Shown: positions 20,980-45,982 of the stretch, in pieces | How positions within the stretch are numbered: position 1 is the first letter of the stretch | Layout of the letters: the number at the start of each line of letters is the position of its first letter | NCBI GenBank assembly: GCA_021268355.1 | Contig: JAJETY010000008.1 | Location: 1-45,982, forward strand | Direction: 5' to 3' | Length of the DNA: 45,982 nt | DNA from: Candidatus Nitrosopumilus sp. | GTDB taxonomy: Archaea > Thermoproteota > Nitrososphaeria > Nitrososphaerales > Nitrosopumilaceae | Program-made: the position numbers and the translations under genes | Notes under the pieces: generated by a model | Databases searched by the model: none | Seen by the model: the letters and a program-made list of their open reading frames with translations, nothing else | Told to the model about the DNA's origin: nothing

Positions 20980-21753
20980 TTAAGAGATTTTTGAGAAAAA
21001 TAACTCTAATGAATTTTCAAATTGGTTTTTGAGATTTTCAAGATGAGTTTTTTCTACAGAAAGATTTTCTTGATTAAACCAAGGTGGAGACAGATACAAA
21101 GAACGATTCATCTCAACTTGAATCCATGGTAAAGGGTTGTTTCCATATGTTTTAGTGATATATCCACCAAGAAAGGGAGAATTTATGGAGATTTCTTTTC
21201 TATCAATAGAGTAAGAATGAGATATGCAATCAGCTAAAAGTTCAATCATCTCATTTGAACAGGTTTTTCCATCCTGATTTGAGAGACAGAATAAGGGTCG
21301 TTTTTTGTTTGCGCCATCAGGAGAAATTCCTGGTGCAACAGATGCCATAGAATGACAATCAATACACAATTTCAAATCAAGTTCTGAAATACTCTTTTGT
21401 ATTGCTTTATGGTATGGTACATAATAAAATTCAATTAATGAATCCCGTAGAAATTTGTCAGGTTCTTTTCCTTTGATGTAAATTGGCTTTTCATAACAGG
21501 TCATGCTTTTGATCAATCCATCAGGATTATCTGGAGGCATTTGTTGTAGTGAACGATTAAGATCAACAAAAGTTCTTGCAACATCGGTTTTTATCACACT
21601 TTGTACTTTGTCTCTTAAATCATAGATCTCGATGACAAAAGGATCAGAGTCATCAAACAAGTCTCTGTCTGTAATGCATAAATGCCCATCAAGTTCCAAA
21701 GGTTTTCTCAATCCACCATGAGGAATTGATAGTAAAAAAGGAAGTTTATTCAT
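20980..21753 (-). CDS. N-formylglutamate amidohydrolase family protein
   Basis: 257 residues of the FGase (HutG) fold. Motifs: LSIPHGG (8-14), RTFVDLNRS, CIDCHSMASVAPG with the metal-binding His, GGYITKTYG, and WIQVEMNRSLYLSP. These are the zinc-site blocks of the family, which belongs to the zinc carboxypeptidase-like amidohydrolases. The canonical reaction is N-formyl-L-glutamate to formate and glutamate; no histidine-degradation genes are nearby, so a different N-acyl-glutamate or glutamyl amide is likelier. Last gene of a three-gene unit: its ATG overlaps the ggt stop by one base. Confidence 0.85.
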   Translation of the reverse strand: MNKLPFLLSIPHGGLRKPLELDGHLCITDRDLFDDSDPFVIEIYDLRDKVQSVIKTDVARTFVDLNRSLQQMPPDNPDGLIKSMTCYEKPIYIKGKEPDKFLRDSLIEFYYVPYHKAIQKSISELDLKLCIDCHSMASVAPGISPDGANKKRPLFCLSNQDGKTCSNEMIELLADCISHSYSIDRKEISINSPFLGGYITKTYGNNPLPWIQVEMNRSLYLSPPWFNQENLSVEKTHLENLKNQFENSLELFFSKIS

Positions 21754-23381: not shown

Positions 23382-25558
23382 TTTTTATTCTTTCCATTTG
23401 TGGTAATTTTGTTTAATACAAGTGCTAGCAAAACACTTCTATCAATTAAACTGTCTTTGAGAATATGCTCATTTGGTGTTCTGTAATCTCCACCAATAGG
23501 ACCCATAGAACCCACCATAGGGACGTCCTGTAAAACATTGCACAAACTAGATGTGGCATACCTATGAGCAGAGTTCACCTTAATGTCAGATTGTTTCGCA
23601 ATAGTTTCAATTAATTCATAAAATTTTTCAATATTTTTTGTTTTTTCTACAGGATCTCTTGTTGCTTCTTTAGTGATATGGATATCCAGTTTAGACTTGT
23701 CTTTCTTTTTTGCAATTCTGTGTAATTCTGAATCGAATCGTTTTCCTTGAGAAGTGTTAACATATCTTGATTCTAAAGATAATTTACCATATTCTGGTGC
23801 TTTTCCAAAAGATGTTGATGCATGAAAATCTGAAATTGTAATTCTAGCGTCATTATGATCCTCAGAAATTTTTTTCCATGAAATTATCTTTTTGCACATA
23901 TCAGGTATTACGTCTTTAATTGTTTCATCAGGTCGCCTTACATGTGTCAAGTCTACATGGTATCTAGTTACGCCAGAGCACGAAGTAGCAATACCCCCAT
24001 TTTCTAGACCCCATTTTAATTCAATAATATGCTTTGATATCTTTGAAGTATCATGTACCAGTTGTTTGCTAAAACGACCTCCCAAACTGTCATCGGTGAT
24101 CAACAAGATTCCACATTTTATTTTCTTGAGTTTTCTTGCAAAACGTAATGCTTTCAGTGCAGAAATCATAGTTACCAATCCACCCTTGCTTTCAGCTATT
24201 CCTGAACCATATAGTCGGTTTCCAGACTTGAAAAATGGTGTAAAATCTTGATTGGTATACCAGGTATCCAGATGACCCAATAGTAAGACATCATTTTCCT
24301 CAGAATCATGATTTCTAAAATATAGCATATTTCCAACATCAAATTCATGATGTTGTTGAGAGACGAATCCCAAATGTTCGAGTCTTCTAGTCATCATTGA
24401 ACCTAACTTATTTACATTTTCAAGATTAGTTACACTAGAGTTAACGTTTACAAATTGTTGGAGCAATGTTTCATTAGTAACTGAGTGGCTTCTAACATAA
24501 CTTCTTACAATTGAACGCAATGATTGAGACTCTATTTTTTCAGATGACGGTACATCCAAATGAGATTCTCCAAAGTATCTCAAAGCTGCAACATCTAGCA
24601 TTTTGTTTAGCAATGTTTCATAGGTGTACCCAGCGGTTTTTGCTGCTGTGTAATAGGAACCGGTTTTTCCCAGACTAGCCATAGAATTTAGTTCAAGGAC
24701 ATAGAAATTACCGTCTTTATCCATTCTAAAGTCTACACGAGTGTAATCATTTAATCCAAGTTTTTTAAATGCAGTAAGAGAGATTCTTTGAATTTCTTCA
24801 GTTTGTTCCGTAGTCAGTTCTGCGGGACAAATTTTATCGATGGGAGTCACTTTTTTGTCAGTAATTGTCTGTATCCGATTTGGATCACCTTTAAGATCCA
24901 TTTCCACAACAGGCAATATCTCAATATGATTTCCATTACCTAATAGCCCAACAGCAAATTCTCTACCAGGAATAAATTGTTCAACCAAAATATCCTGAGA
25001 GTATTTTTGCATTTGTTTTTCAACTGCATTGCGTAAATCATCCCAGTTGTCTACAACTTCCATTCCCATTGAGGTAGATTCCATTTTTGGTTTTACAATT
25101 ACAGGAAATATCAAATCATCAAAAGTATCATCAGGAGATGAAAATACCCAAAAGCCAGGAGTAGGTAGATTATTTTTTTGTAAAACAATTTTTGTCATCA
25201 CTTTGTCTTGAACAACTGCATGTGCTTCAGGACCCGAACCAGTGTAGGGTATTCCTAACATTTCAAGCATTGCAGGAACATGTGTGTAACGATTTTGTCC
25301 TTGAATACCATATGCCATGTTAAAGACCATTCCAGGTCTTTCTCCTGAAACCACTCGGGGCATGAATTCTTTCATATCTTGAATAATGTTCATTCCACCC
25401 TCAATAATTTTTACAGAATGTCCTCCTTTTTCAAGAGACTTGGCAACCTCTTCAACAGTTTTGATGTTATAATGTTCTTTTGTTATCATTCCAAAGACAT
25501 TGATGACATCATGTTCATCAAGTGATTTCTTGTTGTATACAATAGCTACTTTCAACAA
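23378..25558 (-). CDS. ATP-grasp (D-Ala-D-Ala ligase-like) fused to M20 peptidase-like domain
   Basis: 726 residues. Residues 1-330 form a D-alanine:D-alanine ligase-type ATP-grasp enzyme: KPKMESTSMGM loop, EQFIPGREF, and Mg/ATP residues D276 (RVDF), E289 and N291 (LELNS). Residues about 345-726 resemble an M20 metallopeptidase (GHLDTW, H429 and D431; YGSGIAESKGG; GPIGGDYRTPNEH), but several zinc ligands look substituted: E456 for Asp, D490-S491 for Glu-Glu, R693 for His. The ligase half looks active while the peptidase half may be only a binding or vestigial domain. Archaea have no D-Ala-D-Ala cell wall, so a peptide or amino-acid ligase is expected. First gene of the unit; TATA-like TTTATTTT at 25578-25585 supports this start. 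Confidence 0.88.
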   Translation of the reverse strand: MLKVAIVYNKKSLDEHDVINVFGMITKEHYNIKTVEEVAKSLEKGGHSVKIIEGGMNIIQDMKEFMPRVVSGERPGMVFNMAYGIQGQNRYTHVPAMLEMLGIPYTGSGPEAHAVVQDKVMTKIVLQKNNLPTPGFWVFSSPDDTFDDLIFPVIVKPKMESTSMGMEVVDNWDDLRNAVEKQMQKYSQDILVEQFIPGREFAVGLLGNGNHIEILPVVEMDLKGDPNRIQTITDKKVTPIDKICPAELTTEQTEEIQRISLTAFKKLGLNDYTRVDFRMDKDGNFYVLELNSMASLGKTGSYYTAAKTAGYTYETLLNKMLDVAALRYFGESHLDVPSSEKIESQSLRSIVRSYVRSHSVTNETLLQQFVNVNSSVTNLENVNKLGSMMTRRLEHLGFVSQQHHEFDVGNMLYFRNHDSEENDVLLLGHLDTWYTNQDFTPFFKSGNRLYGSGIAESKGGLVTMISALKALRFARKLKKIKCGILLITDDSLGGRFSKQLVHDTSKISKHIIELKWGLENGGIATSCSGVTRYHVDLTHVRRPDETIKDVIPDMCKKIISWKKISEDHNDARITISDFHASTSFGKAPEYGKLSLESRYVNTSQGKRFDSELHRIAKKKDKSKLDIHITKEATRDPVEKTKNIEKFYELIETIAKQSDIKVNSAHRYATSSLCNVLQDVPMVGSMGPIGGDYRTPNEHILKDSLIDRSVLLALVLNKITTNGKNKN

Positions 25559-26515: not shown

Positions 26516-27787
26516 TTAGCAAATACCTATTTCTTGGAGGAACTTGTTTACCTCCTCATTTGCATGTTTTTTGATACGAAGTCTATCTTCTTTTTTTACG
26601 GAAGACATTGCATGTTTCAGAATTCTATCAACTAACAAGACACCACTCTTTGCTCCCTTTGACAATCCCAATTGATACAGTAGGGGCAAATTCGCAATTT
26701 CAGAATTGACCTTCATCTTGATTTGAGGTATTTCATTTGATTTTTTAGGGATTGATAATTCTAGAGAATTTTCAACAACCCTGCCTAGAATTTTATCTAG
26801 ATTTACACCTATATTTTTCTCCATTTTAGTAGATTTTTCTTTCCTTGCATTCATCAAGATACGTTTAATCTTTAAAAGAGCCTGATTGGATTCCACATCA
26901 GCTAAATCTGCTAATGATAAATCAATTCCATACTCTTCATGAAAAGAATTTACAATAAATGAAATAGTTTCTTTTTTGCAGGATTCCTTATTTGTTCCAA
27001 ATGGACAATTATCACAATTTGTTGAAAAGTATCTTGTTCCACGAGGACCAAAACTTGACAATACAATCTTATTTTTTTCCTTCAGTTTACTCATAGTCTT
27101 TGAAACCATGGTATCATCTACATCAAATGTTTTTGCAATTTCTTGATTAGAGTATGAACCTTCATCAACTAATTCTAGTATAGATTGTTCTAATTCCCCT
27201 CTTGAACGCCTTGAAGGTTCCTCTAATGCATCAATTAAGTAGTGAGAGATGATTTTATCTCCAAGATAATGATTGATTGTGATTGTCTTTCCATCAAATT
27301 CTGTACTTAAGCCAGATTTTGATTCATCATGCAAAATTTTCTTAATAATTTTTTCAATATTTTTAATTTTGAATAATTTTAGATTTAAAGAAATATCTTT
27401 GATGCTTATACTGAGATTTCCTTTTACATATTGCTGATAAAGCTCCCAACGAATTTTTCTTTCATTACTTCGTTCAGCATATCTCATTAAATTACAAAAG
27501 CTGTCGATTCTTTTCCAATTTACTTCAGAAATTTCATTGTCAGAATCTTTTAGAAATAGGGACGAGTCTAATTTTTCTAAAAATTCGAAAAATCTATTTT
27601 TGAGTTCTTTAGAAATTTTATTTTTATTTTTGAATACCTCCAGCAAATCTTCTTTTTCAATAATTGGATCTGCTCGGAATTGTTTTGTGTCATATCTCAT
27701 CATTTCAAAAAATTCTAAATTCCCATCAATCAATGAAGTTGGAGAAAATATCTTTAGTGCTGAGAGAGTAAAATTTGAAACAGCCAT
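26516..27787 (-). CDS. Predicted HTH transcriptional regulator with Cys cluster, unknown family
   Basis: 423 residues. A winged-helix-like segment lies about 195-250 (LEQSILELVDEGSYSNQEIA followed by DVDDTMVSKTMSKLKEK), followed at once by a Cys cluster NCDNCPFGTNKESC (about 255-268), which could bind zinc or an Fe-S cluster. Flanking regions are helical and charged, with no enzyme motif. The N-terminal 190 residues carry another possible helical domain. Codons are A/T rich like the neighbours. A TATA-like run with the palindrome ATTAATATTAAT (27814-27825) lies 27-38 bases upstream of the ATG. Being convergent with the microprotein chain, it is a candidate regulator of it. Confidence 0.65.
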   Translation of the reverse strand: MAVSNFTLSALKIFSPTSLIDGNLEFFEMMRYDTKQFRADPIIEKEDLLEVFKNKNKISKELKNRFFEFLEKLDSSLFLKDSDNEISEVNWKRIDSFCNLMRYAERSNERKIRWELYQQYVKGNLSISIKDISLNLKLFKIKNIEKIIKKILHDESKSGLSTEFDGKTITINHYLGDKIISHYLIDALEEPSRRSRGELEQSILELVDEGSYSNQEIAKTFDVDDTMVSKTMSKLKEKNKIVLSSFGPRGTRYFSTNCDNCPFGTNKESCKKETISFIVNSFHEEYGIDLSLADLADVESNQALLKIKRILMNARKEKSTKMEKNIGVNLDKILGRVVENSLELSIPKKSNEIPQIKMKVNSEIANLPLLYQLGLSKGAKSGVLLVDRILKHAMSSVKKEDRLRIKKHANEEVNKFLQEIGIC

Positions 27788-28550: not shown

Positions 28551-29318
28551 TTATCGCAATCCCCATCTTGACATTACTTTGTCTTCTAATTTCTTAAAGA
28601 CGACACCATCTACTGCAAGACCAATTCCCATTATCACTAACATTATTGCAATTACTTGGGAGACATCATTGAGTGAACGTCCAGCATTAAGCAAAAAGCC
28701 CAGTCCTAGGAATGAAAATAGAATTTCAGCACCAATTACGCCTCTCCAGGCAAAGGCCCAGCCTTGCTTAAAGCCTGAAATCATATACGGAAATGCGGCT
28801 GGAATCAATACAGCAGTAACTAATTGACTGCCCTTTGCACCCATGTTTCTTGCAGCCTCGATAAAATGAGGATTGATGTTTTTGACGCCAGTATAGGTGT
28901 TAATGGTTACAGCAAAGATTGCACCAATTGCAGTAACAAAGACAATTCCCGCATCAGTCAAACCAAACCAAAGAATTGCCAGTGGAACCCATGCGATGGA
29001 TGGAATCGATTGTAATCCTAAAACCAGAGAACCTACGGTTTGATTTACAACTTCAACTCGTGCCATGAAAATTCCTAAAACAATACCGCCAGTAATAGCA
29101 ATTGCAAGTCCAACTGTCAATCGCCACATACTAGTTGCTATTCCATAAAATAAACTGCCATCAGCAGCACCATAAGCTAAATCTTCAGCTACTTCATATG
29201 GAGATGGAAAAACATTATCTGGCCAAAGTCCAGTCATTGCAATTATTTGCCAAACAACAATAATGCCAATGTAAAAAGCAATTCTGTGAGGCGTGTAATT
29301 TTTTCCCATATCAATCAC
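28551..29318 (-). CDS. ABC transporter permease, NitT/TauT (SsuC/TauC) type
   Basis: 255 residues with about six transmembrane helices. The cytoplasmic coupling (EAA-like) loop FIEAARNMGAKGSQLVTAVL (about 165-184) is typical of binding-protein-dependent permeases, and the stretch WRGVIGAEILFSFLGLGFLL is characteristic of the SsuC/TauC subgroup. It presumably forms a homodimeric channel with the adjacent ATPase. The start overlaps the ATPase stop by 4 bases. Substrate cannot be read from the permease. Confidence 0.9.
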   Translation of the reverse strand: MIDMGKNYTPHRIAFYIGIIVVWQIIAMTGLWPDNVFPSPYEVAEDLAYGAADGSLFYGIATSMWRLTVGLAIAITGGIVLGIFMARVEVVNQTVGSLVLGLQSIPSIAWVPLAILWFGLTDAGIVFVTAIGAIFAVTINTYTGVKNINPHFIEAARNMGAKGSQLVTAVLIPAAFPYMISGFKQGWAFAWRGVIGAEILFSFLGLGFLLNAGRSLNDVSQVIAIMLVIMGIGLAVDGVVFKKLEDKVMSRWGLR

Positions 29319-30079
29319 TCTTTGTTTTTCTTTACCTCAGGTCTTAGTTCTGCTAGCAAATCTTGTTGTAATTTTAATAAAGATTCATCTTCTGAAACTC
29401 TAGGTCTTGGAAAATTATTTTCAACTTCTTTTTTGATTGTTGATGGACGATTGCTAAAAACTGCGACTTTGGTTCCGAGTACTGCAGCTTCTGCAACGCT
29501 GTGAGTTACAAAAAGAATAGTCTTTTTTGTTTTCTCCCAGATTAATTGCATCTCAACTAGTAACAAATCACGAGTTTGTGCATCTAGTGCTGCAAATGGT
29601 TCATCCATTAGCAATACATCAGGATCCATCACAAGTGCCCTAGCTATTGCTACACGTTGTTTCATTCCAGTTGAAAGTTGGTAAGTGTAAGAATCAGTAA
29701 ATTTGGTTAATTGCATCATGTCAAGGTATCTATGAGATATCTTCGTACGCTCTTCCTTAGGAATTCCAGCCATCTTTAGTCCAAACTCGACGTTATCCTG
29801 GACTGTGAGCCAAGGAAACAAAGCACCTTCTTGAAAAACCATAATTCTTTCTGGACCAGTCTCACTTACTGGACGACCATCAAAGAGTATTTGACCTTCG
29901 TCTGGCTTTTCCAAGCCTGCCACAATGCGCAAAAATGTAGATTTCCCACATCCAGATGGTCCAATCAAGCATACAAAGTCACCAGACTCTACTTTGAGGT
30001 CAACTCCTCCCAAAGCCTTGAGTTTATGAGAATCATGGCTAAAGTACTTGACAATATTTTTTGCCTCTAGTTTGGTCAT
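29315..30079 (-). CDS. ABC transporter ATP-binding protein, SsuB/TauB type
   Basis: 254 residues. Walker A GPSGCGKST (40-48), Q-loop VFQEGALFPW (81-90), signature LSTGMKQR (135-142; Thr replaces the usual second-position Gly), Walker B VLLMDEP (155-161), D-loop ALDAQTR and H-loop Thr-His in FVTHSVAEA. It powers import through the downstream permease. It overlaps its neighbours on both sides (1 base with the binding protein, 4 bases with the permease). Confidence 0.93.
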   Translation of the reverse strand: MTKLEAKNIVKYFSHDSHKLKALGGVDLKVESGDFVCLIGPSGCGKSTFLRIVAGLEKPDEGQILFDGRPVSETGPERIMVFQEGALFPWLTVQDNVEFGLKMAGIPKEERTKISHRYLDMMQLTKFTDSYTYQLSTGMKQRVAIARALVMDPDVLLMDEPFAALDAQTRDLLLVEMQLIWEKTKKTILFVTHSVAEAAVLGTKVAVFSNRPSTIKKEVENNFPRPRVSEDESLLKLQQDLLAELRPEVKKNKE

Positions 30080-31104
30080 TATGTGCTTGCATCCCCCATA
30101 GAATTTGTATCAAAGCTGTAAAAAATTCCAGACAAATCATATCCATTTCTTCCCAGATATCCCAACGCATTAGCTTTTTCAGCAAAAGAGAAGACAGAGT
30201 TAGGAATTGGATCAGAAGTAATTTCAAGATTAGATAATGCTACATCCACTACATCATCAGAAAGAGATTGTCCCAAGTAAGAATCTAAAAAGTTGTTAAA
30301 AACAGTTCGCGTTTCTTTTGGATTTGATTGAATCCAGATTACTGTTTCATGATGAGCTTTTAGAAACTTGTTAATTGTTGATTTATTTGCTTCAACATAA
30401 TCGGTATTTCCAATTAACAATACAGATGCATATTGATTATCTGGCCAAAGTTCCTCTTCATGGAAGAGTCTCTTTCCATTTAATTCGGTCTCCAAAATTG
30501 TTGCCCATGGTTCAGCAACCCATGCGCCATCAATGTCACCCTTTACAAATAGTGTATAGATATCAGGATTTGGGATATTGTAAACAACAACACTTCCACC
30601 TTTTTCAGCTGGCTTTAATTGATTCACAGACAAAAAATGTCTTAATGAGACATCTTGTGTGTTTCCAATTTGAGGAGCTGCAATTTTTTTTCCTGCAAAG
30701 TCTGAGGGGGTATTTATCTTAGAATCAGGATGTACAATAAAGCTTGAACCTCCACTAGCAGCACCTGCAAGAATTTTTAGATTTTTATTTTCAGAATTTA
30801 AAAATCCGTTAATTGCAGGACCAGGACCAACATAAGCAACATCAACAGAGTTTGCAAAAATAGATTCTATTGCCTGAGGTCCGCTATCAAATACCCTGGT
30901 TTCAATTTTAGTGTCATCACCAACGTTTTCTTTAAAGAATCCTTTTTCTATTCCAACAATAGGTACTGCATGACCAATATTGGGAAAATATGCAATTCGT
31001 AGTTTATTCTCGTGTGTAGTATCATCAGAGTTAAGAACAAATCCAATTGCAGAAAATAGTATAATTGCCGCAATTCCAGCAGAAATTACCCCACGAATTT
31101 TCAT
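30079..31104 (-). CDS. ABC transporter substrate-binding protein, SsuA/NMT1 type
   Basis: 341 residues. N-terminal hydrophobic helix (about 7-24) without a lipobox Cys serves as an uncleaved anchor or signal. Periplasmic-type two-lobe fold marks: LRIAYFPNIGHAVPIVGIEK (about 34-53), DVAYVGPGPAINGFLN and DGAWVAEPWATILE, typical of nitrate/sulfonate/taurine binding proteins. Likely substrates are sulfonates, nitrate/nitrite-like anions or a thiamine precursor; the sequence does not decide. First gene of the three-gene importer unit, divergent from argG across a 134-bp promoter region. Confidence 0.88.
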   Translation of the reverse strand: MKIRGVISAGIAAIILFSAIGFVLNSDDTTHENKLRIAYFPNIGHAVPIVGIEKGFFKENVGDDTKIETRVFDSGPQAIESIFANSVDVAYVGPGPAINGFLNSENKNLKILAGAASGGSSFIVHPDSKINTPSDFAGKKIAAPQIGNTQDVSLRHFLSVNQLKPAEKGGSVVVYNIPNPDIYTLFVKGDIDGAWVAEPWATILETELNGKRLFHEEELWPDNQYASVLLIGNTDYVEANKSTINKFLKAHHETVIWIQSNPKETRTVFNNFLDSYLGQSLSDDVVDVALSNLEITSDPIPNSVFSFAEKANALGYLGRNGYDLSGIFYSFDTNSMGDAST

Positions 31105-31238: not shown

Positions 31239-32438
31239 ATGACTAAAAAAGGAATTCTTGCATTTTCGGGAGGATTAGATACTTCTGTTGTTGTAAAATA
31301 TCTACAAGACGAACATGACATGGATGTTGTAACAGTTACTGTGGATGTGGGTCAAGGAGAAGACAATAAAAAAATTGCAGCAAAGGCAAAAAAGTTAGGA
31401 GTAAAAAAACACTACAACATTGATGCTAGAAAGGAGTTTGTCAAAGATTACATTTTCCCTTCAATTAAAGCAAATGCACTTTATCAAAAGAAGTATTGTT
31501 TAGCAACAGCACTTGCGAGACCATTAATCGCTGAGAAAGTTTTAGAGATTGCAAAAAAAGAAAAAGTTACATCATTAGCACATGGTTGTTCAGGAAAAGG
31601 AAATGACCAAGTACGTTTTGACATCACATTACGTTCTGGTTCTAACTTACCGATCATAGCACCTATTCGCGATAAAAATTTAGATAGAGTTACAGAATTA
31701 AAGTTTGCAAAAAAACATGGAATAGAAATCGATAATGTAGCAAAAAAATTCAGTATTGACCAAAACCTATGGGGAAGAGCAATTGAAGGTGGAGTATTAG
31801 AGGATCCATACAATGAACCACCTGATGATGCATTCATTTGGGTTAAGACAAAAAATCTTCCAGACAAACCAACATACTTGGAAATTATATTTGAAAAAGG
31901 AATTCCTGTAGGAGTTGATGGAAAAACAATGGACGGTCAAAAACTAATTGAATACATCAATAAAAAAGCAGGAGATGCAGGAGTAGGAATTGTTGATCAT
32001 ATTGAAGACAGAGTGGTCGGAATTAAATCGAGAGAAGTCTATGAGACACCAGCTGCAACTTGTTTAATTGAAGCACATTCAGATTTAGAAAAAATGGTTC
32101 ATACAAAACATGAGAACAAATTCAAATCAATTATTGATGATGAGTGGGCATATCTAGCATATTCTGGATTATGGCAAGATCCATTAAAATCAGATTTAGA
32201 TGGATTTATCGAGGCATCACAAAATCCAGTTTCAGGTACTGTCAAACTAAAGCTCTACAAAGGTAGTCTAAGGGTAGTTGGAAGAAAATCTAAGAATTCA
32301 CTTTACAGTCATGAGATTGCCACATATGGTACAGAATCCACATTTGACCAAAGATTGGCCAAAGGATTTGTAGAATTATGGGGAATGCAATCAACAGAAG
32401 CTAATAAATTACAAAAGAAAAGGTCAAAAAAAACATGA
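31239..32438 (+). CDS. argG: Argininosuccinate synthase
   Basis: 399 residues, standard length. ATP pyrophosphatase P-loop AFSGGLDTSVV (8-18), citrulline/aspartate site blocks CLATALARPLIAEK, AHGCSGKGNDQVRF and EDRVVGIKSREVYETPAA near the middle. Catalyses ATP-dependent joining of citrulline and aspartate in arginine synthesis. First gene of a long unit whose next gene, lysW, overlaps its stop (ATGA). This coupling ties arginine formation to carrier-based ornithine synthesis. Confidence 0.97.
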   Translation: MTKKGILAFSGGLDTSVVVKYLQDEHDMDVVTVTVDVGQGEDNKKIAAKAKKLGVKKHYNIDARKEFVKDYIFPSIKANALYQKKYCLATALARPLIAEKVLEIAKKEKVTSLAHGCSGKGNDQVRFDITLRSGSNLPIIAPIRDKNLDRVTELKFAKKHGIEIDNVAKKFSIDQNLWGRAIEGGVLEDPYNEPPDDAFIWVKTKNLPDKPTYLEIIFEKGIPVGVDGKTMDGQKLIEYINKKAGDAGVGIVDHIEDRVVGIKSREVYETPAATCLIEAHSDLEKMVHTKHENKFKSIIDDEWAYLAYSGLWQDPLKSDLDGFIEASQNPVSGTVKLKLYKGSLRVVGRKSKNSLYSHEIATYGTESTFDQRLAKGFVELWGMQSTEANKLQKKRSKKT

Positions 32439-32602
32439 ACTGCCCAGAATGTGACGCAACACTAAACATCCCAGACGATGCCGCAGTAGGAGAAATTGTC
32501 TCCTGTCCTGATTGTGGTGCTGACTTTGAAATCGCAAAAAAAGACGGATCAAATGTTGAGCTAAAACAAGCAGAAAGCGTAGGCGAAGACTGGGGAGAGT
32601 AA
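32435..32602 (+). CDS. lysW: LysW carrier protein 1 (C-terminal ...EDWGE)
   Basis: 55 residues: zinc-ribbon-like N-terminus (MNCPECDATLNIPDD, then CPDCGADF) and the canonical carrier tail ending EDWGE. In the LysW pathway the gamma-carboxyl of this terminal Glu is joined to the amino group of alpha-aminoadipate or glutamate, which then stays carrier-bound during phosphorylation, reduction and amination. ATGA overlap with argG and 1-base overlap with the next ligase gene show tight coupling; neighbours suggest this copy serves mainly the ornithine/arginine branch. Confidence 0.95.
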   Translation: MNCPECDATLNIPDDAAVGEIVSCPDCGADFEIAKKDGSNVELKQAESVGEDWGE

Positions 32603-33484: not shown

Positions 33485-34534
33485 ATGATGAAAGTAGGTG
33501 TTGTAGGAGCATCAGGATACGTAGGAGGAGAAACTCTACGTCTTTTGGTCAATCACCCAGACGTTGAGATCACCACAGTCACATCAAGACAACATGTTGG
33601 AGAGTATCTTCATAGAGTACAACCAAGTTTGAAAGGTTTTACCGATCTGACTTTCTCAGAATTAGATTATGACAAATTAACTGACAAGTGTGATTTGGTT
33701 TTCACAGCAGTACCACATGGAACTGCTACTGAAATTGTAAAAGCACTCTATGACAGAGGTGTGAAAATTATTGATTTGAGTGCAGATTACAGATTACATG
33801 ATCAGGAAGCATATGACAAGTGGTATGGTTGGGAGCATCCACATCCAGATTATTTGCCTAAATCAGTTTTTGGTGTACCAGAATTACACAGAGAAGAAAT
33901 CAGAAAAGCACAACTTGTTTCATGTCCAGGATGCATGGCAGTAACATCAATGCTAGCATTAGCACCATTAATTCGAAATGACATTATTGATACAGAACAT
34001 ATAGTAGTTGATTCTAAAATTGGTTCATCAGGTGCAGGTTCTGGTTCAGGAACTGCACATGCAATGAGAGCAGGAGTCATCAGACCATACAAACCAGCAA
34101 AACACAGACACACTGGAGAGATTGAACAAGAGCTAAGTGAAATCGCAGGAAAGAAGATTCATGTATCAATGAGTCCACATGCAGTAGATGTAGTTCGTGG
34201 AATTCTTTGTACAAACCACACATTCATGAAAAAAGATATGGAAGAAAAAGAGTTGTGGAAATTATATCGTCAAACTTATGGTGAAGAAAGATTTGTAAGA
34301 TTAATCCGAGACAAAAAAGGATTATACAAATTCCCAGATCCAAAATTCTTGGTCGGTTCAAACTTTTGTGATATAGGATTTGATTTAGACGAAGACAACC
34401 ACAGATTAATTGCGTTATCTGCATCAGATAACCTAATGAAAGGTGCAGCGGGTTCTGCCATCCAAAACATGAATGTAATGTGTGGTTTTGATGAAATGGA
34501 CGGACTAAGATACACTCCGTTAACACCAGTTTAG
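33485..34534 (+). CDS. argC: LysW-carrier acyl-phosphate reductase (ArgC/LysY)
   Basis: 349 residues of N-acetyl-gamma-glutamyl-phosphate reductase fold: NADP-binding GVVGASGYVGGETLRLL (about 4-20), catalytic Cys in VSCPGCMAVTSM (about 140-151) and a downstream HRHTGEIEQEL segment with the substrate-site His. In LysW systems this enzyme reduces the carrier-bound acyl phosphate to the semialdehyde for both lysine and ornithine. Two adjacent ATGs (33485, 33488). 25 bases after argX with purine-rich sequence before the start. Confidence 0.92.
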   Translation: MMKVGVVGASGYVGGETLRLLVNHPDVEITTVTSRQHVGEYLHRVQPSLKGFTDLTFSELDYDKLTDKCDLVFTAVPHGTATEIVKALYDRGVKIIDLSADYRLHDQEAYDKWYGWEHPHPDYLPKSVFGVPELHREEIRKAQLVSCPGCMAVTSMLALAPLIRNDIIDTEHIVVDSKIGSSGAGSGSGTAHAMRAGVIRPYKPAKHRHTGEIEQELSEIAGKKIHVSMSPHAVDVVRGILCTNHTFMKKDMEEKELWKLYRQTYGEERFVRLIRDKKGLYKFPDPKFLVGSNFCDIGFDLDEDNHRLIALSASDNLMKGAAGSAIQNMNVMCGFDEMDGLRYTPLTPV

Positions 34535-34536
34535 AA

Positions 34537-35340
34537 ATGATTACTATCAAAATCGGTGGTAGTGTAGTAGATGATTTACATCCATCAACAATCGCAGATA
34601 TCAAAAAAGTTGCAGAAACAGAAGGAGTAATTCTAGTTCATGGTGGAGGTAAAGAAGTTACCAAAGTTTGTGAACAACTAGGAAAAGAACCAAAATTTGT
34701 TACTTCTCCAAGTGGAATCAAAAGTAGATACACTGACAAGGAGACTGCAGAAATTTTTACAATGGTGATGTCAGGTAGGATTAACAAGACTATTGTTCAG
34801 ATGCTTCAAAAAAATGGTATTAATGCGATTGGATTGTCAGGTGTGGATGCCAAAGTTATAGTGGCAGACAGAAAAAAGAAGTTATTTATCATAAATGAAA
34901 AAGGGCGAAAACAAGCAATTGATGGTGGTTATACGGGAAAAATCAGAGAAGTCAATGCTAGTTTCATAAAATCACTCTTAGAACAAGGTCTTACGCCTGT
35001 AATTTCACCTATTGCGATTAGCGAAGAATCAGAGTTCCTAAACGTAGATGGAGACAGAGCAGCAGCATATGTTGCAGGAAAAGTAGGCAGTGACAAAGTA
35101 TTATTCATTACAAATGTGGACGGTTTATTGATGGATGACAAAGTTGTTCCTAAACTAACATTAGCTGAAGCAAAAGAGATTAGGCCTAAGATTGGACCAG
35201 GAATGGAAAAGAAGATTTTAGCTTCAACGGAGGCATTAGATATGGGAGTTAAAATAGCATTAATTGCAAATGGTCAAAAAGAAAATCCAATTTCATCTGC
35301 CATTTCACATGACAATTGTACGGTGATTGAACATGAGTGA
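34537..35340 (+). CDS. argB: LysW-carrier aminoadipate/glutamate kinase (ArgB/LysZ)
   Basis: 267 residues of the amino-acid kinase family: KIGGSVVDD at the N-terminus (about 5-13), VHGGGKEV (about 34-41) and the nucleotide-site SEFLNVDGDRAAAYVA and VLFITNVDGLL blocks. In carrier-based synthesis it phosphorylates the side-chain carboxyl of LysW-bound aminoadipate or glutamate. Starts 2 bases after the argC stop and overlaps argD by 8 bases. Confidence 0.93.
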   Translation: MITIKIGGSVVDDLHPSTIADIKKVAETEGVILVHGGGKEVTKVCEQLGKEPKFVTSPSGIKSRYTDKETAEIFTMVMSGRINKTIVQMLQKNGINAIGLSGVDAKVIVADRKKKLFIINEKGRKQAIDGGYTGKIREVNASFIKSLLEQGLTPVISPIAISEESEFLNVDGDRAAAYVAGKVGSDKVLFITNVDGLLMDDKVVPKLTLAEAKEIRPKIGPGMEKKILASTEALDMGVKIALIANGQKENPISSAISHDNCTVIEHE

Positions 35341-36514
35341 AGATCAGTACATGGGCAATCTCTATCAGAGATTTCCAGTAACAGTTGAAAAAGGAAAAGG
35401 CGCACATGTTTGGGATGTGAATGGCAAAGAATACATTGATTGTATGGGAGGATACGGAGTCGCTTTAGTTGGACATCAAAATCAAAGAGTAAACAATGCA
35501 ATCAAAGAGCAAGTCGACAAAATTATCACAGTACACAGTTCTCTGTACAATAAAACAAGAGAGGAGTTTTTAAAAACACTCATTGGTTTAGCGCCAAAAG
35601 GACTAACACAGGTACATCTCAACAACAGCGGCGCAGAAGCAATTGAAGCTGCAATCAAGTTTGCAAGAAAGTTTACAGGTAAAAAAGGAATGGTTGCAAT
35701 GAAAGGTTCCTATCACGGTAAATCATACGGAGCATTATCACTAACATTCAATCCAAAATACAAAAAAGCATTTGCTCCACTGGTGGAAAAAGTTTCTTTT
35801 GCATCATTTGGAGATATAGAATCACTAAAAGAAGTAATTGATGACGATACTGCATTTGTTATTTTAGAACCAATTCAAGGTGAGAGTGGAATTAATGTTG
35901 CTCCAGATGGATTTTTGCAAGATGTCAGAAAGCTTTGTGACGAGAAAGGAATTCTTTTGATTTTTGACGAAATACAAGCAGGTTTAGGAAGGACTGGACG
36001 ATTATGGGCTTGTGATTATTGGAACACAGCGCCAGATATTTTGTGTTTAGCAAAAGGGATTGCAGGAGGAGTTCCAATGGGTGCAACTCTTGTTAGACCA
36101 GACATATTAGATTCAATGAGTAAAGGTGAACACTCCTCAACTTTCGGTGGAAATCCAATTTCATGTGCTGCTGGAATCGCAGCACTCAAATCAATTACAG
36201 AGGATGGGTTGATCGAAAATTCTGAAAAGATGGGAAAGATTTTCAGAGAAGGTCTAGAAAAATTAAAAGAAAAACACAACATGATTAGAGAGATTCGCGG
36301 AAAAGGACTGATGATAGGTGTTGAGATGAAGTTTGAAGTTAAAGATATCTTGATGGGTTTAATCAAAGAAGGCGTTCTCATGTTGTATTCGGGACGAAAT
36401 ATCCTTAGAATATTACCTCCATTAGTAATTACTGAAGAAGACATAACAAAAGTTTTAGATGCTTTAGATACAATACTAACCGAAGAGGAGGAGAAGAGAA
36501 ATGATCAAGGATAA
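35333..36514 (+). CDS. argD: LysW-carrier semialdehyde aminotransferase (ArgD/LysJ)
   Basis: About 393 residues, class III PLP aminotransferase. Marks: NNSGAEAIEAAIKFARKFTG (PLP phosphate binding), LIFDEIQAGLGRTGR with the Asp that pairs with the PLP ring nitrogen, and CLAKGIAGGVPMG carrying the PLP-binding Lys. It aminates the carrier-bound semialdehyde at the future epsilon/delta position. I choose ATG 35333 (overlapping the argB stop by 8 bases); a TTG at 35327 is also in frame. Confidence 0.93.
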   Translation: MSEDQYMGNLYQRFPVTVEKGKGAHVWDVNGKEYIDCMGGYGVALVGHQNQRVNNAIKEQVDKIITVHSSLYNKTREEFLKTLIGLAPKGLTQVHLNNSGAEAIEAAIKFARKFTGKKGMVAMKGSYHGKSYGALSLTFNPKYKKAFAPLVEKVSFASFGDIESLKEVIDDDTAFVILEPIQGESGINVAPDGFLQDVRKLCDEKGILLIFDEIQAGLGRTGRLWACDYWNTAPDILCLAKGIAGGVPMGATLVRPDILDSMSKGEHSSTFGGNPISCAAGIAALKSITEDGLIENSEKMGKIFREGLEKLKEKHNMIREIRGKGLMIGVEMKFEVKDILMGLIKEGVLMLYSGRNILRILPPLVITEEDITKVLDALDTILTEEEEKRNDQG

Positions 36515-36920
36515 CATTGATGAAAAAATTATAGGATATCTAAAAGAGGATTCAAGAGAATCATTTGTAGATATTGGAAAGAAGCTCAAGCTCTCAGAAT
36601 CAGCAGTTAGAAGACGGGTAAAAAATCTCTTAGGTAATGGAACAATCAAAAAATTCACTTTGGAATTAGGAGAAGAAAATGCAACTAGTGCAATTGTATT
36701 GGTGTCAGTTGATTCAGCAACCGATACATCAAAGGTTTCTCTTAAGCTTGCAAAGCTTGATGGTGTCAAAACAGTTTACGAGATTACAGGTCAATACGAC
36801 ATTACAACAATTATGAGCGCCTCTAGTATTGCAGATATTAACAATAGTATTGATGCTTTAAGAAAAATTCCCGGCGTTGTAGACACCAATACTGTGATAA
36901 TCCTTAGAAAAGTCATCTGA
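36501..36920 (+). CDS. lysM: Lrp/AsnC-family regulator (LysM-like)
   Basis: 139 residues: an N-terminal helix-turn-helix (KLKLSESAVRRRVKNLL, about 28-44) and a C-terminal RAM/ACT-like ligand-binding domain (about 65-135). A Lrp-type LysM regulates the lysine genes of Sulfolobus, and this gene overlaps the end of argD, preceded by a strong GAGGAGGAG ribosome binding stretch. Ligand probably lysine or arginine. Its probable target is the promoter at 36990-37036, immediately downstream. Confidence 0.85.
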   Translation: MIKDNIDEKIIGYLKEDSRESFVDIGKKLKLSESAVRRRVKNLLGNGTIKKFTLELGEENATSAIVLVSVDSATDTSKVSLKLAKLDGVKTVYEITGQYDITTIMSASSIADINNSIDALRKIPGVVDTNTVIILRKVI

Positions 36921-37036: not shown

Positions 37037-38200
37037 ATGAAAGATCCGAATCACTATGCGAACATCTACAATGCATATGAAAAAAACCCAAAGAAGATCA
37101 AAGTTTTAGATAGTACTCTTAGAGAAGGTGAACAACACCCAGGTGTTTCATTTACAAATAAACAAAGAATCCAGATTGCATGGATGTTAGATTATTTTGG
37201 AGTAGACCAAATTGAAATTTCACCAGTAGTATCAGAAGATCATAAAGAAGCAACTAAAACAATTATCAAGCAAGGACTAAAAGCAGATATTGTTTCTCAT
37301 GGACGTGCACTAAAAGAAGACATTGATGTGTCATTAGATTGTGATGCAAAATGGTGTGCTGCATATTTAGGAATTTCAGATATTCATCTTAAAGATAAAC
37401 TTCGCATTTCAAGAGAAGAAGCAATGGAGAGAGCTGTAGAAACAGTAGAATATGCAAAATCACATGGACTGAAGATAAGATTTACTGTAGAAGATGGAAG
37501 TAGAGCAGAACCAGAATTTTTGCTAAAAGTTTGTAAAGCAATTGAAGAAGCTGGTGTCGACAGAATAAGTTTACCAGACACTGTGGGCATTATGCGTCCT
37601 ATTGGAATGTACAATTTTGTAAAAAAGGTAAGAGATTCAATTGACGTTCCATTAGATGCACATGTTCACAACGATATTGGATTTGCAGTAGCTAATGCTT
37701 TTTCAGCATGTGATGCAGGAGTAGATCAAATCCATACAACTATTGATGGTATTGGAGAAAGAACAGGAATTCCTCCACTTGCAGAAGTTGCAGTTGCTTT
37801 AACATACTTGTACAAATCACCAAATGATTTCAGATTAGACATGTTACAAGATTTATCTAGATTGATTGAAGAGTATACAGCCATCAAGCCTTATGATTCC
37901 AAACCAATTGTTGGTTCTTCTGCATACAAACACAAGGCAGGAACACATCTAGCTGCAATTTTAAGAAATCCTGCTGCATACGAGCCTATCCCTCCTAGAG
38001 CAGTAGGAAACAGAAGAAGAATCGTATTTGGGGAGTTAGCAGGAAAGACAGGAGCAGCCTATCTAATGTCACTGTTAGGATTAGACAAAGATGATGAAAG
38101 TGCAAAAGCAGTTGCTGCAGGATTAAAAGGACTCAGAATGGGAGATCTGATTGAAATCCCACTTGAAGACAGACTTGAAAAAATAATTAACGATAAATAG
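37037..38200 (+). CDS. hcs: Homocitrate synthase (2-isopropylmalate synthase family)
   Basis: 387 residues of the DRE-TIM family: VLDSTLREGEQHPGVSF near the N-terminus (about 23-39; active-site Arg and metal-binding Asp), DAHVHNDIGFAVANAFS with the metal His-x-His, and SAYKHKAGTH with a conserved His. The full-length leucine-regulatory domain of IPMS is absent (IPMS is about 500+ residues), so homocitrate synthase for the aminoadipate lysine pathway is favoured, and the neighbouring lysW-lysX-lysK agree. It condenses 2-oxoglutarate with acetyl-CoA. Confidence 0.85.
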   Translation: MKDPNHYANIYNAYEKNPKKIKVLDSTLREGEQHPGVSFTNKQRIQIAWMLDYFGVDQIEISPVVSEDHKEATKTIIKQGLKADIVSHGRALKEDIDVSLDCDAKWCAAYLGISDIHLKDKLRISREEAMERAVETVEYAKSHGLKIRFTVEDGSRAEPEFLLKVCKAIEEAGVDRISLPDTVGIMRPIGMYNFVKKVRDSIDVPLDAHVHNDIGFAVANAFSACDAGVDQIHTTIDGIGERTGIPPLAEVAVALTYLYKSPNDFRLDMLQDLSRLIEEYTAIKPYDSKPIVGSSAYKHKAGTHLAAILRNPAAYEPIPPRAVGNRRRIVFGELAGKTGAAYLMSLLGLDKDDESAKAVAAGLKGLRMGDLIEIPLEDRLEKIINDK

Positions 38201-38221: not shown

Positions 38222-38389
38222 ATGTCAAAATGTGAAGAATGTGATGCAGATATTTCCATTCCTAGTGATGCACTAGAAGGAGAAATTGTAACATGTCCGG
38301 AATGTGGCGCAAGTTTTGAATTAGCAAAAGGTTCAGACGGTTTCGATCTAAAGCCTGCCCAAACGGTTGGCGAGGATTGGGGACAGTGA
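38222..38389 (+). CDS. LysW-like carrier protein 2 (C-terminal ...EDWGQ)
   Basis: 55 residues, clearly LysW: MSKCEECDADIS and TCPECGASFELA zinc-ribbon halves and the tail TVGEDWGQ. The reading at 38369-38389 is GGC GAG GAT TGG GGA CAG TGA, so the last residue is Gln, where the first LysW and known LysWs have Glu, the attachment residue. This paralogue neighbours homocitrate synthase and the LysX-like ligase, so it should serve lysine. Either the Gln side chain is deamidated first, or the alpha-carboxyl is used, or it does something else; see findings. Stop overlaps the ligase start. Confidence 0.92.
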   Translation: MSKCEECDADISIPSDALEGEIVTCPECGASFELAKGSDGFDLKPAQTVGEDWGQ

Positions 38390-39228
38390 GTCCTAAAGTT
38401 ACGATTCTTTATGATACCATCCGTTGGGAAGAAAAAGGCCTACTAGAAGCAGGTAAGAAAAATAATATCAACATACAGATGGTTGATTGTAAGAAGTTAG
38501 CAGTAGACTTGGAAAAAAAGCCTGAGGATTACGGAGTGGTAATTCAAAGATGTGTCAGCTATTACAGAAACTTACATTCAACTGCAGCTCTTGAAGGATT
38601 AGGAGTCAAAGTAATCAATTGTCTTAATACTGGAATCTTTGCAGGAAACAAATTATTCACACATATGCTACTTAAGAAAGCTGGAGTTCCAACTCCAGAT
38701 GCAACTGTTGCATTTTCAAAAGATGCAGCTCTTGAAGCACTAGATTCACAAGGATATCCAAAAGTAATCAAACCAACAGTTGGAAGTTGGGGTAGATTAA
38801 TTTCAAAATTGAATGATAGAGATTCTGCTGAAGGAATTATTGAAAGTAGAGAAAACATGTATCCAATTTATCAAGTTCATTATCTGGAAGAATTTGTAAA
38901 AAGACCACCCAGAGATATTAGAGCAATCATGGTAGGAGACAAAATAGTTGCAGCCATCTATCGTAATTCCAAACATTGGAAAACAAATATGGCACTTGGA
39001 GGAGTTGCAGAACCATGCAAAGTAACACAAGAGATGGAAGAAATGTGTATTAAGGCAAAAAATGCAGTTCAAGGAGATATCGTAGGTGTAGATTTGATGG
39101 AAAGTGAAGAGAAAGGATTAGTGGTACACGAAGTAAATAACACAACGGAATACAAAAACACTGTAAGAGTGTGTGAAGTAGATATTCCTTCTCTAATGCT
39201 AGACTATGCACTGAAGATAGACAAGTAA
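38386..39228 (+). CDS. lysX: LysW-aminoadipate ligase (LysX-like; RimK/ATP-grasp family)
   Basis: 280 residues from a GTG start at 38386 that overlaps the carrier stop (MSPKVTILYDTIRWEEKG); a TTG at 38377 would add three residues inside the carrier's tail and is less likely. ATP-grasp marks: KPTVGSWGRL (129-138), KRPPRDIRA and VHEVNNTTEY. The substrate loop is NSKHWKTN (194-201); the HW form matches Thermus LysX as remembered, specific for alpha-aminoadipate, and contrasts with the GF form of the ArgX-like ligase. About 50% similar to ArgX over its length by eye. It joins aminoadipate to LysW 2. Confidence 0.87.
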   Translation: MSPKVTILYDTIRWEEKGLLEAGKKNNINIQMVDCKKLAVDLEKKPEDYGVVIQRCVSYYRNLHSTAALEGLGVKVINCLNTGIFAGNKLFTHMLLKKAGVPTPDATVAFSKDAALEALDSQGYPKVIKPTVGSWGRLISKLNDRDSAEGIIESRENMYPIYQVHYLEEFVKRPPRDIRAIMVGDKIVAAIYRNSKHWKTNMALGGVAEPCKVTQEMEEMCIKAKNAVQGDIVGVDLMESEEKGLVVHEVNNTTEYKNTVRVCEVDIPSLMLDYALKIDK

Positions 39229-39231
39229 GAA

Positions 39232-40359
39232 TTGGACACACATTTTACAGTTACACCAAGATTTGCAACAAAGATGCTTGAAAAAGCACTGAGATTGTAC
39301 ACGCCATCGCTAAGCGAAAAACCAATGGCAGAATTTCTTGCAGACAAGTGTGATGATTTAGGATTTGAAGATATACAGATTGACGAAGTAGGTAATGTGA
39401 TTGCAAAAAAAGGTTCAGGATCTCCAAAAATTATGTTATGTGGACACATGGATGTTGTTCCAGGTAAAGTCAAGGTCAGAAAAGAAGGAGATTCTCTTTA
39501 CGGAAGAGGAGCATCAGATGCAAAAGCACCATTAATGGCAATGCTATTTGCTGCAGCATCAATACAAAACAATAATGGTACAATCATCTTTGTAGGTGCA
39601 GTAGATGAAGAAGGAAATGCAACAGGAATAAAGAATCTTGTTAAAAAAGAGATGGGTGTGGATTATGCTGTTTTTGGAGAACCAAGTGGGATCAAACAAG
39701 TTACAATTGCATACAAAGGACGTTTAGCAATTAGTCTTAAGATTAGTGTGCCAGATAGTTCGCATGCTAGCGCACCATGGCTTTCAAAAAATGCAATTTT
39801 AGAATCAATGATATTTGCAAGAGAGTTAAAGGAAAAACTTGAAGAGAATCAAGAAAATAGATCAAAAGGAATGTTGCTAACTGCAACCATGACAGAAGTT
39901 AAAGGTGGAACAAGTCATAACGTGACTCCAAAAGAGTGTGAGACCACATTTGATATTCGTATTCCAGTTGATATGAATTGTAAATTAATTGAACAAAAAA
40001 TTGCAAATCTTGTCAAAGAGATTGCTCAAAAAAGAGAGGTTGAGGCATTTTATTCAATTCTAGATGAAACCGAACCATTTGAAGCGGCACATGACTCCCC
40101 ACTAGTACGTGCATTTACTCTTGGAATAATGGATGTGGAGCATAGTAGACCAAAGTTAATCAGAAAAACTGGTACTGGTGACATGAATGTACTCGGAACC
40201 CAATGGAACATTCCTGTTGTGACATATGGTCCAGGGGATCCTCATGAAGCTCACACTATTGATGAAAAGGTATCAATTGATGAATATCTTAGAGGAATAG
40301 AGATTCTCAAGAAGGTGCTACAGCATTTAAAAAGACTTCATGATAGAAATATTCAGTAA
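39232..40359 (+). CDS. lysK: LysW-carrier lysine/ornithine hydrolase (LysK, M20 family)
   Basis: 375 residues, TTG start 3 bases after the lysX stop. Canonical M20 metal site: GHMDVVPG (H72, D74), YGRGASDAKAP (D96), VDEEGNAT (E126, E127) and FGEPSG (E150), with a terminal HEAHTIDEKV. It releases lysine or ornithine from LysW and so ends the carrier pathway. Compared with it, the M20-like half of the 23378 gene lacks several of these residues, which makes this a useful internal reference. The diphthine synthase start overlaps its stop by one base. Confidence 0.9.
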   Translation: MDTHFTVTPRFATKMLEKALRLYTPSLSEKPMAEFLADKCDDLGFEDIQIDEVGNVIAKKGSGSPKIMLCGHMDVVPGKVKVRKEGDSLYGRGASDAKAPLMAMLFAAASIQNNNGTIIFVGAVDEEGNATGIKNLVKKEMGVDYAVFGEPSGIKQVTIAYKGRLAISLKISVPDSSHASAPWLSKNAILESMIFARELKEKLEENQENRSKGMLLTATMTEVKGGTSHNVTPKECETTFDIRIPVDMNCKLIEQKIANLVKEIAQKREVEAFYSILDETEPFEAAHDSPLVRAFTLGIMDVEHSRPKLIRKTGTGDMNVLGTQWNIPVVTYGPGDPHEAHTIDEKVSIDEYLRGIEILKKVLQHLKRLHDRNIQ

Positions 40360-45405: not shown

Positions 45406-45982
45406 TCAATCATGATAATCATGTTCATTAAAATCTGAACCTAGTTGTACAGACATGATAACTGTTGTATCAGTTGTTTGGAATTTCAATTCTTTTTCTG
45501 GCAAGAATCCACGAAATATTTGAGTAAGTAATTGTTCTGTAAAGACAGACCACGTTGTTCCCAATTCATGCTGAATCAAAAATGTATGTTTACCACCTTC
45601 AACACGATGATCAGAGTTCATTCCAGATGCTTTCATGTAATCTTCCAAAGTTTCAATACATCTTTTAAAATCATAGCCTCCTTTCATAAACAAAACAGTA
45701 TCCTTAATCAGCGGAAAGATTAATGTAATTATTTCATCAATTTCTTTACCGTCCAATTGACTTCCCAAAGATTCAACAATAGCTTTTGGTACAGGAATCA
45801 TTCCAATTTTATTAGAAAATCTATCCCATTGCACGTATTTTTCTAAAATTTGTTTTACAAGCACATTTTGAGAAATGCTTTTCATTGTTGCTTCTGTTTC
45901 TAATTCACTAACCAATTTTTCAGGAAGTCTATAGGTAATACTACGTGTAGATTCCTTCTTATGATTATGAATCTGTCTGTTC
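45406..45982 (-). CDS. Ribbon-helix-helix-like DNA-binding protein (N-terminus cut by window edge)
   Basis: The frame is open from the right edge to the stop at 45406, about 192 residues visible. A TTG at 45915 would give 169 residues, but in-frame upstream codons continue the protein: RSITYRLPEKLVSELETEAT followed by MKSISQNVLVKQILEKYVQW, a pattern like an RHH (CopG/Arc) motif with strand, helix, turn, helix. So the true start lies beyond the window. The rest (KIGMIPVPKAIVESLG and a second alpha/beta part) is not recognised. Possibly a transcriptional regulator. It is preceded downstream by 43 bases from the CBS gene start. Confidence 0.6.
   Translation of the reverse strand, partial: NRQIHNHKKESTRSITYRLPEKLVSELETEATMKSISQNVLVKQILEKYVQWDRFSNKIGMIPVPKAIVESLGSQLDGKEIDEIITLIFPLIKDTVLFMKGGYDFKRCIETLEDYMKASGMNSDHRVEGGKHTFLIQHELGTTWSVFTEQLLTQIFRGFLPEKELKFQTTDTTVIMSVQLGSDFNEHDYHD

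What the first reader, a model, noticed from the sequence alone, without database searches (positions are those of the whole stretch)
38222..38389. A LysW-type carrier that ends in Gln instead of the attachment Glu
In known LysW systems the substrate's amino group is linked to the gamma-carboxyl of the C-terminal Glu (tail EDWGE, as in lysW 1 at 32435-32602). The second carrier is otherwise typical but reads GAG GAT TGG GGA CAG TGA, giving EDWGQ. A Gln side chain cannot accept that linkage directly. Either the Gln is deamidated (maybe reversibly, as a control step), or substrate is linked through the alpha-carboxyl, or this carrier has a different role (for example feedback or holding a zinc). 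It sits between homocitrate synthase and an AAA-type ligase, so it is not a random degenerate copy.
Basis: partly seen in the sequence, partly recalled or inferred. Interest (0 to 1): 0.82.

Follow-up and report, generated by a model that had tools for sequence, protein, structure and literature searches.

The report
Amino-acid carrier ending in glutamine
A tiny carrier protein that ammonia-oxidizing archaea use to build lysine and arginine often ends in glutamine instead of the glutamate known to hold the cargo, in some species on their only carrier, so these microbes probably need an unrecognised step that turns the glutamine into glutamate first.

Summary
LysW2 (38222-38389 +) ends EDWGQ (CAG at 38384-38386) and LysW1 (32435-32602 +) ends EDWGE. 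It is neither an error nor a one-off. The Gln tail occurs in 263 of 400 class genomes, almost only in three families that I take to be the ammonia oxidizers, plus two distant Thermoproteota. It is not confined to a spare carrier. In genomes fitting Nitrososphaera both carriers end in Gln, and in three closed genomes fitting Nitrosocosmicus the only LysW found ends in Gln, beside complete arginine and lysine clusters. The last residue has switched Glu/Gln at least eight times, but no third residue appeared in 170 genomes. LysX keeps its tail-binding GSWGR motif in all 237 pairs and shows no column tracking the tail. One LysZ kinase per genome must serve both tails. Best reading: the Gln carrier is functional, is deamidated to Glu, then loaded by LysX on the gamma-carboxyl as usual, a Pup/Dop-like priming step not described for LysW in the papers searched. 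The Pup deamidase family is absent. My candidate is LysK, which already cleaves the amide on that same side chain, but this is a guess. Alpha-carboxyl loading is less likely. No biochemistry was done.

The parts
38222..38389 (+). lysW2: amino-group carrier of the lysine branch, 55 aa, Cys4/Cys7/Cys25/Cys28, C-terminal EDWGQ
   Evidence: NCBIfam NF041070 carrier_LysW_Arch 89.2 bits, cut-off 75
38384..38386 (+). CAG codon of the C-terminal Gln; only its third base is shared with the GTG start of lysX2, so GAG would fit the overlap equally well
   Evidence: conserved in relatives
38386..39228 (+). lysX2: ATP-grasp ligase, LysX type (EVNNTTEYKNTVRV), keeps the GSWGR motif
   Evidence: TIGR02144 LysX_arch 331.5 bits, cut-off 275.6; 3vpd/5k2m homologues
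37037..38200 (+). homocitrate-synthase-type enzyme (LeuA/LysS family) in front of lysW2
   Evidence: best specific models are below their cut-offs (TIGR02146 380 of 413.6 bits); assignment rests on family and context
39232..40359 (+). lysK: M20-family [LysW]-lysine/ornithine hydrolase; candidate deamidase of the Gln tail (inference)
   Evidence: TIGR01902 283.4 bits, cut-off 163.1; 5xoy T. thermophilus LysK E 9.9e-52
32435..32602 (+). lysW1 (argW): carrier of the arginine branch, C-terminal EDWGE
   Evidence: NF041070 93 bits
32602..33459 (+). argX: LysX/ArgX-type ligase of the arginine branch (EVNNTVEFKGLARV), keeps GSWGR
   Evidence: TIGR02144 290.3 bits; tree
33485..34534 (+). lysY/argC: [LysW]-acyl-phosphate reductase
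   Evidence: TIGR01850 414.6 bits
34537..35340 (+). lysZ/argB: [LysW]-aminoadipate/glutamate kinase, the only copy found in the genome
   Evidence: NF010662 301.8 bits; one match in G000 and in each of 10 other genomes
35336..36514 (+). lysJ/argD: [LysW]-semialdehyde transaminase
   Evidence: TIGR00707 442.9 bits, cut-off 410
36501..36920 (+). Lrp/AsnC-type regulator kept in the cluster
   Evidence: Pfam PF13404 and PF01037; conserved position
31239..32438 (+). argG at the start of the arginine cluster
   Evidence: ORF; homologues in the same place in other genomes

Best explanation
LysW2 is a working amino-group carrier made as a pro-form. Its C-terminal Gln55 is deamidated to Glu. LysX2 then joins alpha-aminoadipate to the new gamma-carboxyl with ATP, and the shared LysZ, LysY, LysJ and LysK finish lysine and release the carrier in its Glu form, so each molecule needs priming only once. 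Shown here by comparison: Gln carriers stand in for Glu carriers on both branches, sometimes as the only carrier found, and only Glu or Gln occurs at that place. Inferred: the deamidation, and the gamma-linkage on these carriers. Guessed: that LysK is the deamidase, because its normal job is to cleave an amide on the same side-chain carboxyl, as Dop both deamidates PupQ and removes Pup from its targets.
For: Gln tail throughout Nitrosopumilaceae (f1), f2 and f3. At least 29 genomes of 90% completeness or more in f3 and genus g7 match the Gln pattern and have no Glu-tail match. Closed genomes G150, G165 and G171 hold a complete argG-argX-lysY-lysZ-lysJ-lrp-HCS-lysW-lysX-lysK cluster with one LysW ending in Gln; a whole-genome protein search of G150 and G165 found one LysW each, and G171 has one Gln match and no Glu match. 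All four Lys/Arg tail combinations exist: Q/E, Q/Q, E/Q, E/E. No tail other than E or Q in 170 genomes. At least 8 switches on the LysX tree (5 Lys + 3 Arg within ammonia oxidizers). No LysX column tracks the tail; GSWGR in 237 of 237 LysX partners. One LysZ per genome for both carriers. The gene set of the cluster is the same with Gln or Glu tails. Natrinema ArgW E54A is an arginine auxotroph (PMC10433800). PupQ is deamidated by the depupylase Dop (PMC8599861).
Against: No deamidation was observed and no deamidase identified; the Pup ligase/Dop family PF03136 is absent from 15 genomes while the control rings. LysK recognises lysine or ornithine as leaving group, and nothing shows that it accepts ammonia. 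An AOA-wide set of LysK differences exists but cannot be separated from ancestry. If Glu and Gln were fully equivalent, G/C switches should be commoner: a rough estimate from fourfold sites expects about 20-60 changes where 5 and 3 are seen (poorly determined fit), so the state is under some selection that this model does not explain.
Confidence: 0.6

Rival explanations
1. Alpha-carboxyl loading: LysX2 joins alpha-aminoadipate to the alpha-carboxyl of Gln55, as RimK-type relatives do on their own substrates, and the Gln side chain is only a recognition handle.
For: LysX belongs to the RimK ATP-grasp family (TIGR00768 287 bits). From my own knowledge, RimK and CofF make alpha-linked products, so the fold can do it. 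LysX sequence need not change between tails.
Against: An alpha-linkage would tolerate other last residues, yet only E or Q is found. Natrinema E54A is an auxotroph. A single LysZ serves E- and Q-tailed carriers in one cell, so loaded carriers should look alike. Frequent E/Q switching without partner change fits one shared linkage.
Confidence: 0.13
2. LysX itself uses the Gln carboxamide directly: ATP activates the amide oxygen and the amino group of the substrate displaces ammonia, giving the usual gamma-isopeptide without a separate deamidase.
For: Needs no extra gene, and none is found in the cluster. It would explain E/Q interchange. Amide activation by ATP is discussed for Dop and argininosuccinate synthesis (PMC8599861).
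Against: No LysX residue tracks the tail, so one active site would have to accept both a carboxylate and a carboxamide. No ATP-grasp precedent known to me.
Confidence: 0.1
3. The Gln carrier is not loaded at all; it is a regulator, decoy or zinc store, and the Glu carrier LysW1 does all carrier work in this genome.
For: In Nitrosopumilaceae one Glu carrier and one Gln carrier usually coexist, so LysW1 could in principle serve both ligases.
Against: Nitrososphaera-like genomes have two Gln carriers and Nitrosocosmicus-like genomes a single Gln carrier, with no Glu carrier found and full clusters for both pathways. The same lysW gene reverts to Glu in several lineages in its normal place.
Confidence: 0.06
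4. Only the small part of the carrier in which Glu is wrongly placed at the Gln codon (incomplete amidation of Glu-tRNA(Gln)) is active.
For: From general knowledge, archaea make Gln-tRNA(Gln) by amidating Glu-tRNA(Gln), so some Glu at CAG/CAA is possible. A catalytic carrier is needed only in small amount.
Against: Would be costly and hard to keep conserved over so many lineages; nothing here supports it. Not tested.
Confidence: 0.03

Closest known systems
LysW/ArgW amino-group carrier proteins (Thermus, Sulfolobus, Thermococcus, Natrinema)
   Same: Size, four Cys, EDWG tail, place next to LysX/ArgX, NCBIfam NF041070 above cut-off, 3vpb_E and 3wwl_A homologues
   Different: The encoded last residue is Gln, not the attachment Glu
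Pup/Dop/PafA pupylation system
   Same: A small carrier protein encoded with a C-terminal Gln in some species and Glu in others; the gamma-carboxyl of the last residue is the attachment point; in PupQ species Dop must deamidate the Gln (PMC8599861)
   Different: LysW is not homologous to Pup; no Pup ligase/Dop family member in 15 genomes; the cargo here is a small amino acid, not a protein
RimK-family ATP-grasp ligases (RimK, MptN, CofF)
   Same: LysX2 is of this superfamily
   Different: LysX is known to use a gamma-carboxyl of a carrier protein

Membership tests
LysW/ArgW carrier family (archaeal, NF041070) | Family profile above curated cut-off | tested here: met
   89.2 bits, cut-off 75; the equivalog TIGR01206 lysW is below its cut-off (31.3 of 53.2), as is LysW1 (39.8)
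LysW/ArgW carrier family (archaeal, NF041070) | Four zinc-binding Cys | tested here: met
   C4, C7, C25, C28 in the translation; zinc itself not tested
LysW/ArgW carrier family (archaeal, NF041070) | C-terminal EDWGE motif with attachment Glu | tested here: not met
   EDWGQ as encoded; EDWG met, last Glu not. Whether the mature protein ends in Glu is the open question
LysW/ArgW carrier family (archaeal, NF041070) | Adjacent LysX/ArgX with the GSWGR tail-recognition motif | tested here: met
   lysX2 at 38386-39228; GSWGR in all 237 unique pairs
LysW/ArgW carrier family (archaeal, NF041070) | Covalent loading on the gamma-carboxyl of the last residue | not testable with these tools
   needs mass spectrometry
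Pup-type Gln-ended modifier | Dop/PafA homologue in the genome | tested here: not met
   PF03136: 0 of 15 genomes; control Corynebacterium glutamicum rings
Pup-type Gln-ended modifier | Gln/Glu alternation at the last residue among relatives and no other residue | tested here: met
   resemblance in behaviour, not homology

The most novel reading that the evidence does not exclude
Ammonia-oxidizing archaea load Gln-ended LysW by chemistry not known for this carrier system: either direct ATP-driven displacement of the Gln amide by LysX, or a reversible amidation/deamidation of the tail that switches lysine and arginine synthesis with nitrogen status.
Probability: 0.15. Interest if true: 0.88.

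Novelty: new variant of a known kind. Interest (0 to 1): 0.7.

Why it matters
The C-terminal Glu is taken as the defining chemical feature of LysW carriers. Here a widespread set of archaea encodes Gln there, in some genomes on the only carrier found, so lysine and arginine synthesis in these organisms should contain a step missing from current pathway models. It would be a second, unrelated case of Pup-like priming of a C-terminal Gln. It can be tested cheaply: existing proteomes of ammonia oxidizers can be re-searched for a few peptide masses, and an E-to-Q mutant of a known LysW/ArgW tests it in vivo. The fact that only Glu and Gln alternate is a natural mutagenesis experiment on the carrier tail.

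Tried and rejected
Sequencing error or one-off: rejected. Overlap with the lysX2 start forcing CAG: rejected, because only the third base lies in the overlap and Gln tails without it use CAA or CAG. Degenerate spare copy: rejected. Co-adapted LysX: searched for LysX columns that follow the tail in revertants, none found. A dedicated deamidase gene in the cluster: none seen; the gene set is the same in Glu-only relatives. Dop homologue: absent. E/Q as a fully neutral site: disfavoured by the rough fourfold-site rate, but that fit has more parameters than columns. LysK residues that mark Gln lineages: a list exists but is confounded by ancestry. JBC papers on LysZ-LysW and LysY-LysW were not held. 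A text search for 'EDWGQ' found nothing, but most subscription journals are outside the library.

Full report
What is there. The window (GC 35.2%) is contig 67 of a 98% complete Nitrosopumilus-like genome, G000. On the + strand it holds argG, lysW1, argX, lysY, lysZ, lysJ, an Lrp-type regulator, a homocitrate-synthase-type gene, lysW2, lysX2, lysK and a tetrapyrrole-methylase-family gene (PF00590; I read it as diphthine synthase). LysW2 ends VGEDWGQ and LysW1 ends VGEDWGE. LysW2 passes the archaeal LysW/ArgW profile, and its best solved relatives are LysW proteins 3vpb_E and 3wwl_A.

Not a one-off. All 29 LysW2 loci fetched from the same genus read GEDWGQ, with different Gly codons before a constant CAG. 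A pattern search found the Gln tail in 263 of 400 class genomes and the Glu tail in 305 of 400. The Gln tail is confined to families f1, f2 and f3; families f4 to f24 showed only Glu. From genome sizes I take f1 to f3 to be the ammonia oxidizers, Nitrosopumilaceae, Nitrosocaldaceae and Nitrososphaeraceae. G147 (1,577,284 bp, closed) fits Ca. Nitrosocaldus cavascurensis, 1.58 Mbp (PMC5797428). G165 (2,989,777), G175 (2,833,868) and G191 (2,527,938) fit Nitrosocosmicus exaquare 2.99, Nitrososphaera gargensis 2.83 and N. viennensis 2.53 Mb (PMC5398378; contig sizes). G150 (2,836,447) fits Nitrosocosmicus franklandus 2.84 Mb (PMC6776761 abstract). These names are inferences, since the handles carry none. 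Two distant Thermoproteota, G502 and G526, also have a Gln-ended LysW followed by a LysX-like ligase.

Which carrier. I paired each LysW with its downstream ligase and split ligases into aminoadipate type (EVNNTTE[FY]KN) and glutamate type (EVNNTVEF[RK]G). The usual Nitrosopumilaceae state is Lys carrier Gln, Arg carrier Glu. Genus g28 (Nitrososphaera by size), g25, g46 and g48 have Gln on both; f1 genus g7 has two Gln carriers as well, the second not next to its ligase. g30 and g36 have Lys Glu and Arg Gln. The clade of G032, G065, G066 and G087, and also G079 and G196, has Glu on both. In G150 and G165 a whole-genome protein search found a single LysW. In G150, G165 and G171 argX follows argG directly, without a lysW1, and the remaining LysW ends in Gln. 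From, at least 29 genomes of 90% completeness or more in f3 and g7 show a Gln tail and no Glu tail. N. viennensis was cultured in mineral medium with ammonium, vitamins and pyruvate and no amino acids listed (PMC4129164), so if G191 is that species, two Gln carriers suffice to make both amino acids.

Only Glu or Gln. Three patterns covering every other last residue after GEDWG gave no match in 170 class genomes. Among 237 codon-aligned tails the first base of the last codon is only C or G, the second only A, and the third only A or G. The LysX tree (115 rows) needs at least 8 tail changes: one gain at the base of the ammonia-oxidizer Lys carriers with several reversions, and separate gains on Arg carriers in f3 and in G342. 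Within ammonia oxidizers there are 5 changes on the Lys side and 3 on the Arg side. A rough fourfold-site rate predicts about 20 to 60 G/C changes, so switching is perhaps tenfold slower than neutral. The fit has more parameters than columns and should be read as a direction only.

What follows. A side chain restricted to Glu or Gln points to chemistry at the gamma position. The arginine auxotrophy of the Natrinema ArgW E54A mutant says the same for a Glu carrier (PMC10433800). LysX partners all keep GSWGR, the motif reported to recognise EDWGE (and PMC10433800), and no LysX column follows the tail in the revertants. There is one LysZ kinase in each of 11 genomes checked, including G000, so loaded Gln and Glu carriers must both fit it. 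The simplest reading is that both end up as the same gamma-glutamyl adduct, which for a Gln tail requires loss of the amide. The precedent is Pup: encoded with Gln in some actinobacteria, deamidated by Dop, which also cleaves the finished isopeptide (PMC8599861). No Dop/PafA relative is present. LysK is the enzyme of this pathway that already cleaves an amide on the same side-chain carboxyl, and it is present and intact here (5xoy homologue), so I name it as first candidate, as a guess. The cluster carries no gene in Gln lineages that Glu-only relatives lack.

Novelty and limits. The text library has no paper with 'EDWGQ', and a published N. maritimus model names only one LysW, Nmar_1287 (PMC6038301). 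I cannot exclude a mention in subscription journals. Nothing here measures a protein; deamidation, linkage and the enzyme remain inferences.

Noticed in passing
window 23378-25558 (-): One 726-aa protein joins a D-Ala-D-Ala-ligase-type ATP-grasp domain to an M20 peptidase domain, next to a gamma-glutamyltranspeptidase (21753-23381 -) and an N-formylglutamate amidohydrolase (20980-21753 -). Ligase plus M20 hydrolase is the same pairing as LysX plus LysK, here fused.
   Followed up: no
L260, L261, L262 (G150, G165, G171): Three closed Nitrosocosmicus-like genomes have lost lysW1; argX follows argG directly and must borrow the single Gln-ended LysW located beside lysX.
   Followed up: partly
L264 6571-7150 and L263 7316-7518: Gln-ended LysW in two Thermoproteota outside the class; in L264 about 415 bases separate LysW from its ligase.
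   Followed up: partly
L051 (G342), L269 (G130), L270 (G201): Extra Gln-ended LysW copies in Nitrosopumilaceae: L051 beside an Arg-type ligase; L269 and L270 with no other cluster gene matched on the fetched contig piece.
   Followed up: no
window 39232-40359 (lysK): LysK of ammonia oxidizers differs from Glu-only relatives at a set of nearly fixed positions (for example 60, 99, 160, 297 of the window protein); ancestry and function cannot be separated.
   Followed up: partly
window 28551-31104 (-): ABC importer set (permease, ATPase, NMT1-type binding protein) upstream on the opposite strand, of the nitrate/taurine/thiamine-precursor kind.
   Followed up: no
window 26516-27787 (-) and 45406-45915 (-): Two ORFs of 423 and 169 aa with no Pfam match.
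   Followed up: no
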